DNA of 64,000 bases from a virus: the IMG/VR virus record IMGVR_UViG_3300029319_000019, positions 16,340 through 80,339 of that record; one strand, given 5' to 3'. Under the pieces are notes generated by a model. That model had not been told where the DNA came from. It ran no database searches and worked only from the letters and a program-made list of their open reading frames with translations. Each line of letters opens with the position of its first letter. The stretch's first letter is position 1. Below are positions 18,479 to 61,792 of this stretch, piece by piece. The translations under genes and the position numbers were made by a program.

Positions 18479-18945
18479 TAATCAAAATCAATATATTCTA
18501 TTGTTACTTCTTCTCCATTAGCTATTGCCTTTGCAATAGACGGATAAATCCTTTTATAAGCGTTAACGCTTTTACCAACAAACCCGTCAGGTAGTAGTTG
18601 GTTATTTTCCTGTGCATCGCCAACGATAAGACACCCAGCAGTGTGCTCGTCAGTGTTTCCAGTATGAATAAGAATATACTCAAAGTTAGGAACATCAGTG
18701 ACATGCAACATACCACGGTGTATACCAGGATATTTTTTAGTATATCTTTCATGAAATCCACCTTCTTTTCTTAATTCTATTTTATATGTGCCTGCAGGTA
18801 CTCTAGTTTCACCTCTAACTTTTAAAGCTCTACGCTCGTCTTCAAGTGTGTAACAGAGAAATTTATTACCCATATCACCCTCTTCAAATAATAAACCTGA
18901 AGTTGAGTCTGCTTCTGAGCTAAATCTTAATACTTTTAGTTTCAT
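18478..18945 (-). CDS. DUF5675-like protein, possible cell-wall enzyme
   Basis: 155 residues. The segment ILIHTGNTDEHTAGCLIVG (H94, H101, C105) matches DUF5675 as I recall it, and resembles the H...SxGC active site of L,D-transpeptidases. GETRVPAGTYKIELR is a second family mark. The protein would be cytoplasmic unless a holin releases it. A holin gene lies about 1.4 kb further along the operon and no lysozyme, amidase or peptidase motif was seen in the window, so this is the best endolysin candidate. The enzymatic role is inferred. It overlaps the T9SS-type gene by four bases. Confidence 0.65.
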   Translation of the reverse strand: MKLKVLRFSSEADSTSGLLFEEGDMGNKFLCYTLEDERRALKVRGETRVPAGTYKIELRKEGGFHERYTKKYPGIHRGMLHVTDVPNFEYILIHTGNTDEHTAGCLIVGDAQENNQLLPDGFVGKSVNAYKRIYPSIAKAIANGEEVTIEYIDFD

Positions 18946-21344
18946 TGTACAATTATTATTGTTGTAAAGTTTACCTTATCTTTAGTAACCTTTAAATAGT
19001 TTATACCTTTTTCTAATTTTATTCTTCTTACATTTTTATAGAAAACATGATCCGTACCTAAGTTGTCTATTACTAATACATCTACCTCTTCTTTAAAGTT
19101 TATGTAATCTTTTGTTGGATTAGGATATGGTATAAGCGCTGATCTTTCATACATTGCAATGTCTGTCGGTCCTGACCAGCCATCTTCACAATATGCGTAT
19201 AATGCGTCACATGTGCCATCCCATGTATCATCACAGCAATAAGGATCTACCTGTATTACCCACTCAAAACAAGCGTTAGGAATATAATATACATCACCAG
19301 AGTTACACCCAGCACTATAATAACACGAACTGTCTGCCACGTTAGCAAGCGGATTGTAATTAATAGCGGTCGCATCAGTGCAGCCAGACAAAGGATAAAT
19401 ACAGCTACCATTATCAGTATTTGCATTATCATCGTAATTAAGTGCTGTGCTGTCGGTACATCCATAATAGTAAGGTATACAGTTTCCATTATCAGTATTA
19501 CAAGTATCGCAATAGTTCCACATAGTTGGATCAATACACCCAAATATTACAGGTATGCAAGATCCATCGTCAGTGTTAGCTAACGCATTATAATTAAAGG
19601 CTGCACCATCAGTACAGCCCCAGATAACGGGTATGCATGAACCATCATCTGTATTCGCTAATATGTCATAGTTAAAAGCTGTACTATCCGTACAACCTAG
19701 TACAACATCTATACATGTACCATCATCAGCATTTGCTAATGGGTTATAGTTTATTGCATCAACATCCATACATCCGTATACAAAAGGAGTACAAGATCCA
19801 TTGTCTGTATTAGCAAGAGGATCAAAATTAAACATTGTACTATCTGTACATCCATATATAAATGGTATGCAACTACCATTGTCTGTGTTTGCTAATGAGT
19901 TATAATTAAACATTGTATTATCTGTGCAACCAAAAATAATTGGAACACATGAGCCGTCATCTGTATTTGCTAACGGATTGTAGTTAAAGGCTGTGACGTC
20001 TAAACAACCTAAAACTACGGGCGTGCACGACCCATCATCCGTGTTTGCTAAGGAATCATAATTAAAAGCTGTTACATCTGTACAACCGTATATATAAGGA
20101 ATACAGCTACCATCGTCTACATTTGCATTAATATTGTAGTTTAACATTGTAGGATCAGTGCATCCTTCTACTACTTCTATACAAGAGCCTGCTATTTCTA
20201 CATTTGCAAGAGAGTCGTAATTTAACGCAGTACTGTCCATACACCCTATCACAACTAAAGTAGCACATGACCCATCATCATAATCATAAGAAGCGTCGTA
20301 TTCTAAATATATAGGATTAGTACATCCTGGATTATAGTAACAACTTCCATCGTCTGTATTTACTGTATCATTATAGTTTACAGCTAAGCTGTCTATACAT
20401 CCGTACGTTCTTTCTATACAAGTATTACCACAATATGGTTGTCCTATAATAGGAAAGAATGGTGGTATAGGATTAACAAAACCACCTTCTATGTCTATTG
20501 CATAATAATCTTCTGAGTATAAAGAATAGCCACATTGTACTGCAGTAAAGTCTGATTGTTGTGTTATTTCAAATATTGCTCTAACAGGATAACCTGCTGC
20601 TAAATTTATAAAGAACGTTGTATCAAAACCATCTACTAAAGTATAAGTTCCAATGTCTTGATAGTTGAATGGCGGTATTAAACTAGTTGCTTGTGCTAAC
20701 TTTAAACTAGATCCAGCCCAACCATTACCAGCTAAATCTGTTAATTCTAACTCATGCATACAGCTATCTATGTTTATATCTGTATTAGCTGAGTCTAAAT
20801 AATTATATGCTAATGAGTCTGTACAACCGTATATTCTTGGTGTAAAGCACATTCCCGTGTCTAATGTAGCTGCTATGTCAAACTCTACATAGCTACTATC
20901 CATACACCCAAATACTGGAGGGGGCGGAGGGCACCCTGACGTATATATTGTATCATACATAAAGCTACCAAAGTCAGCCATAGGCAGCTCCCAAATAGTG
21001 TCGCCACATTGTTCTATATATACAGAACCATCATTACCACCCCATAAACTACCTGCTATACCATCACCGTATGTATCATTGATAACAAAATAAAAACTAT
21101 CAATAGGTGCACAAGCTGCAGCATATTGTGGTTCATAATCTATAATGTTTGTGTATGGCCCACCTTGCATTAGTGTATCACCAAAGAAAGTCATTATATA
21201 CCAAGACGTTTCTTCTGGATATTGATCAGGATTTATAGTAACATTTAAACTCCACGTACCTGGAGGGCATTGTCCAAATGTTGTAGCTACAGTAAATACT
21301 GTAACCATAATTAGTGCATATAATGTTTTTGTAAAATTATTCAT
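18942..21344 (-). CDS. Secreted GCTD-repeat protein with T9SS C-terminal sorting domain
   Basis: 800 residues. Residues 1-24 form a signal peptide (hydrophobic core ALIMVTVFTVATTFG). Two beta domains follow (30-135, 195-300), the first with Pro-rich spacer PPPPPVFG. Sixteen tandem units of about 24 residues, of the form GCTDxxAxNYxxLANTDDGSC, fill most of residues 146-680, each with two Cys that could form a disulphide. The last 70 residues (PYPNPTKDYINF ... GINYLKVTKDKVNFTT) match the type A C-terminal domain that sends Bacteroidota proteins through the type IX secretion system. The most direct reading is a protein exported to the host surface or medium; incorporation in virions is the alternative. 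It lies between the lysis-like genes and a LamG-like gene. Confidence 0.85.
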   Translation of the reverse strand: MNNFTKTLYALIMVTVFTVATTFGQCPPGTWSLNVTINPDQYPEETSWYIMTFFGDTLMQGGPYTNIIDYEPQYAAACAPIDSFYFVINDTYGDGIAGSLWGGNDGSVYIEQCGDTIWELPMADFGSFMYDTIYTSGCPPPPPVFGCMDSSYVEFDIAATLDTGMCFTPRIYGCTDSLAYNYLDSANTDINIDSCMHELELTDLAGNGWAGSSLKLAQATSLIPPFNYQDIGTYTLVDGFDTTFFINLAAGYPVRAIFEITQQSDFTAVQCGYSLYSEDYYAIDIEGGFVNPIPPFFPIIGQPYCGNTCIERTYGCIDSLAVNYNDTVNTDDGSCYYNPGCTNPIYLEYDASYDYDDGSCATLVVIGCMDSTALNYDSLANVEIAGSCIEVVEGCTDPTMLNYNINANVDDGSCIPYIYGCTDVTAFNYDSLANTDDGSCTPVVLGCLDVTAFNYNPLANTDDGSCVPIIFGCTDNTMFNYNSLANTDNGSCIPFIYGCTDSTMFNFDPLANTDNGSCTPFVYGCMDVDAINYNPLANADDGTCIDVVLGCTDSTAFNYDILANTDDGSCIPVIWGCTDGAAFNYNALANTDDGSCIPVIFGCIDPTMWNYCDTCNTDNGNCIPYYYGCTDSTALNYDDNANTDNGSCIYPLSGCTDATAINYNPLANVADSSCYYSAGCNSGDVYYIPNACFEWVIQVDPYCCDDTWDGTCDALYAYCEDGWSGPTDIAMYERSALIPYPNPTKDYINFKEEVDVLVIDNLGTDHVFYKNVRRIKLEKGINYLKVTKDKVNFTTIIIVQ
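19323..20909 (-). repeat. Tandem coding repeat, about 16 units of 72-75 bp
   Basis: The DNA behind the GCTD units of the exported 800-aa protein. Units are degenerate at DNA level but keep Gly-Cys, Asp, Asn-Tyr and the Asp-Gly-Ser-Cys end. Spacing is mostly regular from the middle on; the first four units are looser. The repeats can recombine, so unit number may differ between related phages. Confidence 0.85.
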
Positions 21345-46493: not shown

Positions 46494-46499
46494 TTAGTT

Positions 46500-46528
46500 A
46501 GAGGCTTCGGCCTCTTTCTTTTCTTTTT
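46500..46528 (+). terminator. Rho-independent terminator
   Basis: AGAGGC-TTCG-GCCTCT, a perfect stem with a TTCG tetraloop, followed by TTCTTTTCTTTTTT. It closes the single-gene transcript ending at 46493. Confidence 0.92.
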
Positions 46529-46564
46529 TCTGTTGTTTACTACAATACGAATAAGATACTTATT

Positions 46565-46603: not shown

Positions 46604-46680
46604 CGTTGTAGCGTTCATTCACCACATTTTACCACATTTTACCAATCAATAGGTTTATTCCTATTACATTATATATCATT

Positions 46681-46869
46681 ATGACTAACGATGAATTATT
46701 TGAAATTGTAGCAGTGCTTACTGCTAAAAATATGGCTCTTGAAGAAAAGATAGAGAAAATGAAAGAATCTCATGAATTCCGATTAAGAGCTCTACAACAA
46801 CAGATTGATCTCTACAAACGTTTATATGAAAATAAATATGAATCAGAAGTAGAAGAGGAAGATCATTAA
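46681..46869 (+). CDS. Small coiled-coil protein, 62 aa
   Basis: Almost entirely one charged helix: LFEIVAVLTAKNMALEEKIE and then KMKESHEFRLRALQQQIDLY. The heptad pattern suggests a dimer. It is second in the early arm, after copy 3 of the repeat module and the doubled word accacatttt at 46619-46641. Function unknown; it could bind and inhibit a host protein. Confidence 0.6.
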   Translation: MTNDELFEIVAVLTAKNMALEEKIEKMKESHEFRLRALQQQIDLYKRLYENKYESEVEEEDH

Positions 46870-46879
46870 AGATATTTAA

Positions 46880-47130
46880 GATTACAGGAGCTTTACATAA
46901 TAGAGTGGTCGATCTCTATATGACAGGCAGGTTTGATCACCTGCTCTGTTGCTCCGTACGATATAAAGAGAGTTAGCTAGTGCACATAGCTACCATCCTG
47001 ATACTATTATAAGGCAGTGAAATACAGAAATAAGACTAGGATCTGTACTCTCTTTTAACCTACATGCAGCAACGTGGTTGACTAGGATCAATGACCAGAC
47101 AGGCCTGTAGCCTAGCTTCCACCAAGCTGT
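46880..47130 (+). ncRNA. Strongly folded non-coding RNA candidate
   Basis: A gene-free stretch of about 300 bases between small early genes. Perfect stems seen: ATAGAG/CTCTAT (46900-46919), GCAGGT/ACCTGC extended by ACAG/CTGT (46923-46949), TAGCT/AGCTA (46974-46992) held inside the long-range pairing AAAGAGAGT (46965-46973) with ACTCTCTTT (47047-47055), palindrome ACAGGCCTGT (47099-47108) and AGCTT/AAGCT (47114-47128). GACTAGGATC is repeated at 47034 and 47080. It is not a tRNA shape. The number of stems in an A/T-rich genome argues for selected structure: a phage small RNA or an mRNA leader. Confidence 0.6.
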
Positions 47131-47173
47131 ATCAATTATTAACTTACATTTATTAACCAATACTTACATTATT

Positions 47174-47419
47174 ATGAAATCTTACTTTCATTTAAAACGA
47201 TTGACAGCCATTTACCAAATATTGTCGTTTATTTCTTTTGTTCCTTTACTTATATCTATGGTCTTTATCATAGATGGTAAAGCTTTTACATTAGAAACTA
47301 CATTAACTTTAATCATATCTATCATAGCAATGATTGGATTTACTATGCGTCACGATATGTATCAGAAGAAGTTAAGGAACTTTGATTACAAACATTATCT
47401 TGATAAACTAGATAAGTAA
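47174..47419 (+). CDS. Two-span membrane protein, 81 aa
   Basis: Two hydrophobic segments, around AIYQILSFISFVPLLISMVF (residues 13-33) and LETTLTLIISIIAMIGFTMR (37-56), with a basic C-terminal end (RHDMYQKKLRNFDYKHYLDK). The likely site is the inner membrane with both ends inside. It starts a little set of membrane-directed genes. Membrane changes to exclude other phages are possible. It starts after the structured RNA region with a leader of TTATTAACCAATACTTACATT type, common in this arm. Confidence 0.65.
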   Translation: MKSYFHLKRLTAIYQILSFISFVPLLISMVFIIDGKAFTLETTLTLIISIIAMIGFTMRHDMYQKKLRNFDYKHYLDKLDK

Positions 47420-47586: not shown

Positions 47587-47687
47587 TATACAAATTTATA
47601 AAGTTCTTAATGTATTGTGTATGTGCGTGTGTGATTGCTAGTGCAGCAGTCATATTCGCATTGTATACTTTACATACATTTAATTAA
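47577..47687 (+). CDS. Membrane peptide overlapping the lipoprotein gene, 36 aa
   Basis: MQIVYKFIKFLMYCVCACVI, then ASAAVIFALYTLHTFN: basic start and one membrane segment. It begins inside the end of the lipoprotein gene in another frame, as spanin pairs sometimes do. The stop TAA lies inside the left arm of the big hairpin at 47686-47748. Too short to recognise a family. Confidence 0.5.
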   Translation: MQIVYKFIKFLMYCVCACVIASAAVIFALYTLHTFN

Positions 47688-47748
47688 ATCTCGTCGGGTT
47701 TTCCCTAACCAACTGATTATGCTTTACGCTAAAGGTTGGACGAGATTT
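47686..47748 (+). terminator. Long hairpin, terminator or RNA element
   Basis: AAATCTCGTC and GACGAGATTT pair perfectly over ten bases around a 43-base loop that holds AACC/GGTT inner pairing. The loop is long for a terminator, so a structured RNA or processing site is as likely. A short A/T-rich tail follows. Confidence 0.5.
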
Positions 47749-47780
47749 AACATTATTAACATTACTTACATTTAAACGAC

Positions 47781-48242: not shown

Positions 48243-48251
48243 TAAACAGAG

Positions 48252-48280
48252 TAGCCGTGCTGTAAAGACGGCTAATTTTT
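48252..48280 (+). terminator. Rho-independent terminator
   Basis: TAGCCGT-GCTGTAAAG-ACGGCTA with A and five T after. It ends the transcript of the 153-aa gene. Confidence 0.88.
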
Positions 48281-61664: not shown

Positions 61665-61762
61665 AATAATTATGGGTGTGCAAGAGCGTAGGTCCTGACG
61701 AGGCAATAAGTACTTAATTGAGAATCAGACGGTTGCGTCGCTCATTCTCAGCCCTAATTATT
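61665..61762 (+). ncRNA. Structured RNA region between rIIA and rIIB genes
   Basis: AATAATTA(T)GGG (61665-61676) pairs with CCCTAATTATT (61752-61762), closing a junction that holds TGAGAAT/ATTCTCA (61719-61750) with inner GACG-GTTG-CGTC and CCT-GACG-AGG (61693-61702). The pairing is perfect apart from a bulge and an inner loop. The right arm touches the -33 box of the next promoter. It could be a processed 3' end, a terminator or a small RNA. The word CTGACGA resembles a hammerhead core but the GAAA part is absent. Confidence 0.55.
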
Positions 61763-61792
61763 TGTATAAACAAAATTTTTATATTAACTTTG
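61761..61792 (+). promoter_or_regulatory. Bacteroidota-type promoter for rIIB gene
   Basis: TTTG, 20 bases, TAACTTTG then TAAC. It fits the -33/-7 consensus with the same 20-base spacing as at 49195. RNA would start about 14 bases before the ATG at 61811. Confidence 0.78.

What the first reader, a model, noticed from the sequence alone, without database searches (positions are those of the whole stretch)
46880..47130. Highly folded non-coding RNA in the early arm
At least six perfect stems, one of them long-range (AAAGAGAGT with ACTCTCTTT, 74 bases apart), plus a palindrome and a 10-base direct repeat, lie in a stretch of about 300 bases with no gene. This density of pairing in an A/T-rich genome is far from chance. 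It is not a tRNA or a known riboswitch shape to my eye, so it may be a new phage RNA, perhaps an anti-host or regulator RNA.
Basis: seen in the sequence. Interest (0 to 1): 0.68.

Follow-up and report, generated by a model that had tools for sequence, protein, structure and literature searches.

The report
Shuffled structured-RNA genes in crAss-like phages
A 300-base gap in this sea-phage genome holds up to three small folded RNAs side by side; the middle one is a genuine, previously undescribed RNA family that distantly related phages share almost letter for letter, so it looks like a portable RNA gene, although what it does has not been tested.

Summary
The gap 46870-47173 is real, non-coding and structured, but it is not one RNA. 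It holds three back-to-back units. In 17 distinct copies, 8 of its 25 pairs change on both sides while pairing is kept (97% of cells pair; slid controls 28-54%). G-U pairs put the RNA on the + strand. B matches nothing in Rfam. It is normally single-copy, and in relatives it sits before many different genes. In phages whose terminase or helicase is only ~25% identical, B is 92-98% identical, and this similarity ends at or within a few bases of its closing helix: a transferable RNA gene. A (46882-46962) is a shortened copy of a 106-nt RNA, complete in relatives. C (47064-47132) has no known relative. The same gaps in relatives carry other RNAs: J (6 covarying pairs, also in freshwater phages), a covarying leader hairpin E, and four distinct hammerhead-ribozyme sequences (0 in 10.3 Mb of control sequence). 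Best guess: exchangeable RNA genes, co-transcribed with tiny early genes, released and acting as free RNAs. That activity is inferred, not shown.

The parts
46498..46530 (+). intrinsic-terminator-like hairpin (GAGGC-TTCG-GCCTC + T-rich tail) that closes the preceding 82-aa gene and separates it from the array
   Evidence: sequence; hairpin in fold of the gap
46623..46675 (+). conserved leader/promoter region with hairpin AATAGGTTTATTCCTATT, marks the upstream end of the variable locus in relatives
   Evidence: conserved in most relatives; a weak Bacteroidetes-type -33/-7 (TTTT-N19-TAGGTTTA, 2 mismatches) overlaps it
46882..46962 (+). unit A: structured RNA element (closing helix UAC.GGAGC / GCUCC.GUA); a deletion derivative of a 106-nt RNA that is complete in L031, L111 and L112
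   Evidence: fold z -3.6; most differences among 5 copies fall in loops or linkers; the overlapping open frame has a stop in L031 and L111. No compensatory changes seen, so support is moderate
46965..47056 (+). unit B: conserved structured RNA of 92 nt, four helices (P1 46965-46973/47047-47055; P2 hairpin with loop GUGCACA; variable arm P3; P4 ACAGA/UCUGU with conserved internal loop), ends in CUCUCUUUU
   Evidence: covariation, model searches, homology confined to the unit in distant phages, no long open frame (sequence)
47064..47132 (+). unit C: orphan element closed by AUGCAGC/GCUGUAU; no relative found
   Evidence: fold z -2.5; 0 exact hits of a 20-mer in IMG/VR; structure not supported by comparison
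47686..47748 (+). element D: conserved in most relatives at or just after the preceding stop codon; folds well (AAATCTCGTC/GACGAGATTT, z -3.8) but its 3' half also reads LYAKGWTRY in one frame, so RNA versus remnant ORF is unresolved
48245..48275 (+). element E: leader hairpin with conserved loop GCUG(U)AAAG and at least three different, self-complementary stems in relatives; immediately upstream of the leader of the 79-aa gene in most relatives

Best explanation
The region is part of an array of small structured-RNA genes set between tiny early genes of a marine crAss-like phage. Shown: B is a real RNA family on the + strand with a four-helix fold. It is a discrete unit ending at its own closing helix. 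It is normally single-copy, is placed before many different genes, and is nearly identical in very distant phages, so it is most simply read as exchanged horizontally as a unit. Other RNAs (J, A, E, hammerhead ribozymes) occupy the same gaps in relatives. Inferred: the array is transcribed with the early genes; each unit folds on its own; the closing helix plus U-run (CUCUCUUUU) and neighbouring cleavage (hammerheads in some relatives) set or free the RNA ends; and the released RNA works in trans for the phage, for example against host defence or host regulation, rather than controlling one particular neighbouring gene.
For: Covariation of B: 17 distinct copies, 96.9% of cells paired, 8 pairs and 17 cells changed on both sides, 0 of 500 shuffles as high, slid controls 0-4 pairs. 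The G-U cells in P2 fit the + strand only. One copy in 18 of the 20 records searched, none in the other two; two copies in L013 only. Downstream genes differ: 81-aa gene (window), g57 (L022), g153 (L007), g79 (L012), a 139-aa gene (L024), a 107-aa gene (L048), a 50-aa gene (L035). Window B versus L048 is 97.8% identical and versus L035 92.4%. With 300-nt flanks the alignment covers only 46965-47057 for L048 and 46961-47056 for L035, while proteins are ~25% identical. Hammerheads: four distinct sequences, all in these gaps, 0 in 10.3 Mb Markov and 2.1 Mb reversed controls. J: 10 copies, 98% paired, 6 pairs changed on both sides, also in phages with no detectable protein similarity in the stretch held. 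Unit U present in L112 and absent from its close relative L111 at the same site.
Against: No expression data. B's closing helix P1 and helix P4 hardly vary, so covariation supports P2 and P3 only, and the alignment was fitted to the structure. Several other 'units' seen in relatives proved to be ORF remnants (read from the sequences), so the array is part RNA, part gene debris. No hammerhead is found in the window's own record. A trans role is argued from distribution only. The window's A is a truncated copy and C is an orphan.
Confidence: 0.5

Rival explanations
1. General cis-acting mRNA elements: each unit is a folded intercistronic spacer that insulates, stabilises or sets the ends of neighbouring early mRNAs, for instance as an RNase site or leaky terminator with the closing helix and U-run. 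Any sturdy fold would do, which is why units are interchangeable.
For: Units lie between co-directional genes and often end about 20-45 nt before an ATG, in an A/T-rich leader; several end in helix + U-run (B CUCUCUUUU; J in freshwater phages CUUGUUAUAUUUUUUUU); hammerheads L031 HH2 and L112 lie right before a gene leader.
Against: If any fold would do, near-invariant loops and helices would not be kept: B's P1, P4, GUGCA loop and AUA..GG internal loop, and J's core, are almost fixed. Units often stack two or three deep.
Confidence: 0.3
2. B, J or A are new self-cleaving ribozymes: compact 60-110 nt multi-helix RNAs next to hammerheads in phage intergenic gaps, as pistol, hatchet and twister-sister were found.
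For: Association with hammerheads in the same arrays; size, multi-helix form and conserved unpaired bases. Pistol and related ribozymes were found by searching near known ribozymes and phage genes (PMC4604425).
Against: No match to any ribozyme family. B's P1 and P4 are invariant in sequence, unlike typical ribozyme stems. No cleavage site can be pointed to.
Confidence: 0.12
3. Small mobile DNA elements (MITE-like) whose terminal inverted repeats happen to be the closing helix; the fold is a by-product and the elements are parasitic.
For: Perfect 9-bp terminal inverted repeat; discrete ends; horizontal spread; L112 unit U flanked by TATA on both sides where L111 has CATA.
Against: Normally single copy per genome; no consistent target-site duplication around B in about 19 contexts; selection on internal helices P2 and P3; different units have different ends.
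Confidence: 0.08

Closest known systems
Hammerhead ribozymes in phage intergenic regions (PMC3088659; Rfam RF00163/RF00008)
   Same: Relatives of the window carry type-I hammerheads with the full catalytic core in the same gaps, as in phages PaP3 and Bcep176 or the triple hammerheads around ardA in Agrobacterium.
   Different: B, A and C are not hammerheads; none is in the window's own record; the relatives' copies score below Rfam's threshold (best 27 bits against a cut-off of 48.5).
HDV-like theta ribozymes next to phage tRNAs (PMC10879173)
   Same: Ribozymes next to small structured RNAs in phages thought to infect Bacteroidota, proposed to trim the neighbouring RNA.
   Different: No tRNAs in these arrays; hammerhead rather than HDV fold; the neighbours are unknown RNAs.
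RAGATH-type RNA motifs and pistol/hatchet/twister-sister ribozymes (PMC4604425)
   Same: Unknown compact RNAs near known ribozymes in phage intergenic gaps.
   Different: No sequence or covariance match in Rfam 15; self-cleavage untested; B has sequence-invariant outer helices.
Phage T4 stable RNAs C and D in the tRNA cluster (from own knowledge)
   Same: Small stable phage RNAs of unknown function processed from a tandem array of RNA genes.
   Different: T4's lie among tRNAs; here no tRNAs, the units are exchanged between distant phages, and no transcript has been shown.
RNA anti-CRISPRs, Racrs (PMC10651486)
   Same: Small phage RNAs that could act against host defence.
   Different: Racrs copy a CRISPR repeat; a conserved 18-base stretch of B gave only isolated single hits in 84,980 genomes, none an RNA match.

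Membership tests
tRNA / tmRNA | cloverleaf recognised by ARAGORN or Rfam RF00005 | tested here: not met
Any Rfam 15 family | score at or above a family's gathering threshold | tested here: not met
   0 hits in the whole window; only chance-level hits in the region. In relatives nothing overlaps the units except a below-threshold hammerhead match in L031
Hammerhead ribozyme (units A, B, C of the window) | CUGANGA ... GAAA ... UH core with three helices | tested here: not met
   pattern search and RF00163 search found none in the window's record
Hammerhead ribozyme (elements in relatives L031, L111, L112, L230) | CUGAUGA-stem II-GAAA-stem III-UC with closing stem I | tested here: met
   4 distinct sequences with an intact core and differing stems; 0 in controls. 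Cleavage not tested; Rfam scores below threshold
Gene-specific cis-regulator (riboswitch or leader) | consistent linkage to one type of downstream gene | tested here: not met
   B precedes at least seven different genes; E, in contrast, mostly stays with the 79-aa gene
MITE-like mobile DNA element | terminal inverted repeats | tested here: met
   9-bp perfect inverted repeat
MITE-like mobile DNA element | several copies per genome and target-site duplication | tested here: not met
   single copy in each of the 18 records with a match; no consistent duplication at B's flanks
RNA anti-CRISPR (Racr) | copy of a host CRISPR repeat | tested here: inconclusive
   one conserved 18-base stretch of B found no repeat array among 84,980 genomes; whole unit and other units not compared with CRISPR repeats
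Type III toxin-antitoxin RNA | tandem repeats of the RNA next to a toxin gene | tested here: not met
   B is single copy without tandem repeats
Self-cleaving ribozyme (new class) | site-specific cleavage in vitro | not testable with these tools
   needs an in vitro transcription assay

The most novel reading that the evidence does not exclude
CrAss-like and unrelated aquatic phages share a pool of portable, 60-110-nt structured RNA genes (B, J, A and others), kept in early-gene arrays, trimmed by hammerhead ribozymes in some lineages, and acting as free RNA effectors against the host: an RNA counterpart of the small anti-defence protein genes that phages swap.
Probability: 0.3. Interest if true: 0.85.

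Novelty: new variant of a known kind. Interest (0 to 1): 0.62.

Why it matters
The searches made turned up no described non-coding RNAs of this kind in crAss-like phages. RNA families that are nearly identical in phages whose core proteins are ~25% identical, and that stop at the closing helix, imply strong selection on the RNA itself and a way of moving RNA genes as units. The presence of hammerheads in the same arrays gives a testable processing mechanism. B and J are defined well enough for covariance models, so metatranscriptomes can be searched at once.

Tried and rejected
Taking all conserved intergenic blocks of the relatives as RNAs: rejected, because T+F, I, H, K (and perhaps M) read as continuous protein frames and are probably gene remnants; D is ambiguous. 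A as protein-coding: rejected, because its frame has a stop in L031 and L111 and the varying positions sit mostly in loops. First covariance model R1: structure shifted by one base, giving nonsense counts for P1; rebuilt as R2. C: no relatives. B in INPHARED phages, in bacterial genomes and in plasmids: only short chance matches. J in INPHARED and in 300 genomes of one bacterial family chosen through an Aquimarina locus: none. Palindromic loop GUGCAC as a dimerisation signal: noticed, not pursued. No published description of such arrays in crAss-like phages turned up in the searches made.

Full report
WHAT IS THERE. The window lies in an 80.3-kb IMG/VR virus record. Its terminase is ~40% identical to gut crAss phages and matches 156 records, many named Bacteroides, Flavobacterium, Cellulophaga or crAssphage, so it is a crAss-like phage; no DNA similarity to INPHARED phages was found. 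The gap between the 62-aa gene (stop at 46869) and the 81-aa gene (ATG at 47174) has no credible gene, no tRNA and no Rfam match. Folding energy is only mildly unusual: z = -2.0 on +, -2.7 on -, and unit B alone z = -1.0. Energy alone would not have justified the claim.

THREE UNITS, NOT ONE RNA. Relatives were found through neighbouring proteins and DNA patterns. In them the pieces of this gap occur separately. B without A and C sits before other genes in many contigs (L003, L007, L010, L012, L016, L022, L024). A without B lies before the 81-aa gene in L005, and in full form after the 62-aa-type gene in L111 and L112. C was found nowhere else.

B IS A CONSERVED RNA. With a corrected model (R2), 22 copies (17 distinct) were aligned. 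96.9% of cells pair; 8 pairs and 17 cells change on both sides; 0 of 500 shuffles reach this, and slid structures give 0-4 pairs. The signal is in P2 (for example UAGCUA..UAGCUA, UGGUUA..UAACCA and, in the second copy of L013, UGGUUC..GAACUA) and P3 (CUG/CAG, CCG/CGG). G-U cells in P2 (7 and 3) fit the + strand. P1 and P4 hardly vary, so they are supported by conservation and by the fold, not by covariation. The P3 arm and the P4 tip vary in length; the P2 loop (mostly GUGCA), the ACC and A-rich linkers and the AUA..GG internal loop are kept. The window's B has stops in all three frames (sequence).

B IS A DISCRETE, EXCHANGED UNIT. It is found once in each of 18 of 20 records searched, twice only in L013. 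It is also in contigs L048 (119 kb), L035, L055 and L058, whose proteins in the stretches held match the window at only ~25-31% (terminase 24.8%, helicase 25%), yet the RNA is 97.8% (L048) and 92.4% (L035) identical to the window's. With 300 bases of flank on each side the alignment covers just 46965-47057 (L048) and 46961-47056 (L035). That is not inheritance of a larger block of DNA; it is transfer of the unit, or extreme conservation of it alone. The genes behind it differ, so it is not a gene-specific leader.

THE COMPANY IT KEEPS. The same gaps in relatives carry: J, an 80-nt RNA with 10 distinct copies, 98% of cells paired and 6 pairs changed on both sides, found at three different sites in this phage group and in freshwater phages where its closing helix runs into a U8 tract; E, a leader hairpin with a fixed GCUG(U)AAAG loop and at least three different stems; full-length A, 106 nt with several arms, of which the window keeps a shortened form; U, present in L112 but absent from its close relative L111 at the same place; and hammerhead ribozymes. 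Four distinct hammerhead sequences with intact CUGAUGA/GAAA/UC cores occur: two in L031-type contigs (bracketing A), one in L111/L112 and a close variant in L230. The same criteria give 0 hits in 10.3 Mb of Markov sequence and 2.1 Mb of reversed sequence. Rfam scores the best one below threshold (27 against 48.5 bits), so activity must be tested. The window's own record has none.

A CORRECTION MADE ON THE WAY. Several blocks first taken for RNAs look like protein remnants: T+F reads QSNWQRRIPKQEDKLLFIASLIRRKGIPDDYVRRRVWACYKELLT, and I, H and K are open frames too (read from the sequences). The locus is a recombination-prone mix of RNA genes, tiny genes and gene debris. D is ambiguous: it folds well (z -3.8) but part of it reads LYAKGWTRY.

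HOW IT PROBABLY WORKS (inferred). A terminator-like hairpin at 46498-46530 and a conserved leader at 46623-46675 suggest that a new early transcript starts before the array. Units fold independently, closed by their own end helices. Some are followed by U-runs and some lie next to hammerheads, so RNA ends can be made by termination or self-cleavage. Because B is single copy, indifferent to the downstream gene, constrained inside, and shared by distant phages, a trans role for the phage is more likely than control of one neighbour. A general mRNA-end or insulator role is the main rival.

KNOWN OR NEW. No Rfam family, tRNA or known ribozyme matches B or J. Phage hammerheads in intergenic gaps (PMC3088659), theta ribozymes next to phage tRNAs (PMC10879173) and RNA anti-CRISPRs (PMC10651486) are the nearest published kinds. 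B is not a member of any of the first two on the tests made; the Racr test was partial. I rate it a new RNA family within a new variant of a known kind: phage small-RNA arrays.

Noticed in passing
window 61665-61770: Another folded element in the 146-nt gap between a 911-aa ATPase-like gene (rIIA-like by eye) and the next gene; its 95-nt core is 88% identical in one relative (G008) and absent from 20 other records, many of them incomplete.
   Followed up: partly
L031 586-960 (also L032, L044, L049, L050, L052, L056, L110): Two type-I hammerhead ribozymes on the same strand about 325 nt apart bracket full-length A and an ORF remnant; tandem hammerheads could excise a defined RNA.
   Followed up: partly
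L225-L236 (freshwater and other contigs): RNA J, ~80 nt with a nearly invariant core, is a separate new RNA family with its own closing helix and U-rich tail, mostly in phages with little or no detectable protein similarity to the window in the stretches held.
   Followed up: yes
L016 3893-4240: The 72-aa gene is followed in the +1 frame by a conserved 40-odd-codon frame without its own ATG; either a frameshift-extended protein or a decayed gene. In L031 the A RNA lies inside this frame.
   Followed up: no
window 47635-47775: Element D overlaps a frame without a clear ATG reading KSRRVFPNQL..LYAKGWTR, conserved in both sequence types; may be a translated HTH-like peptide, an RNA, or both.
   Followed up: partly
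window 46070 (- strand): Perfect Bacteroidetes-type promoter (TTTG-N19-TATTTTTG) pointing into the oppositely oriented gene arm.
   Followed up: no
window 18942-21344 (- strand): 800-aa protein of repeated calcium-binding-like motifs (GCxDxxAxNYNPLANxDDGSC) ending in what looks like a type IX secretion sorting domain; unusual for a phage protein.
   Followed up: no
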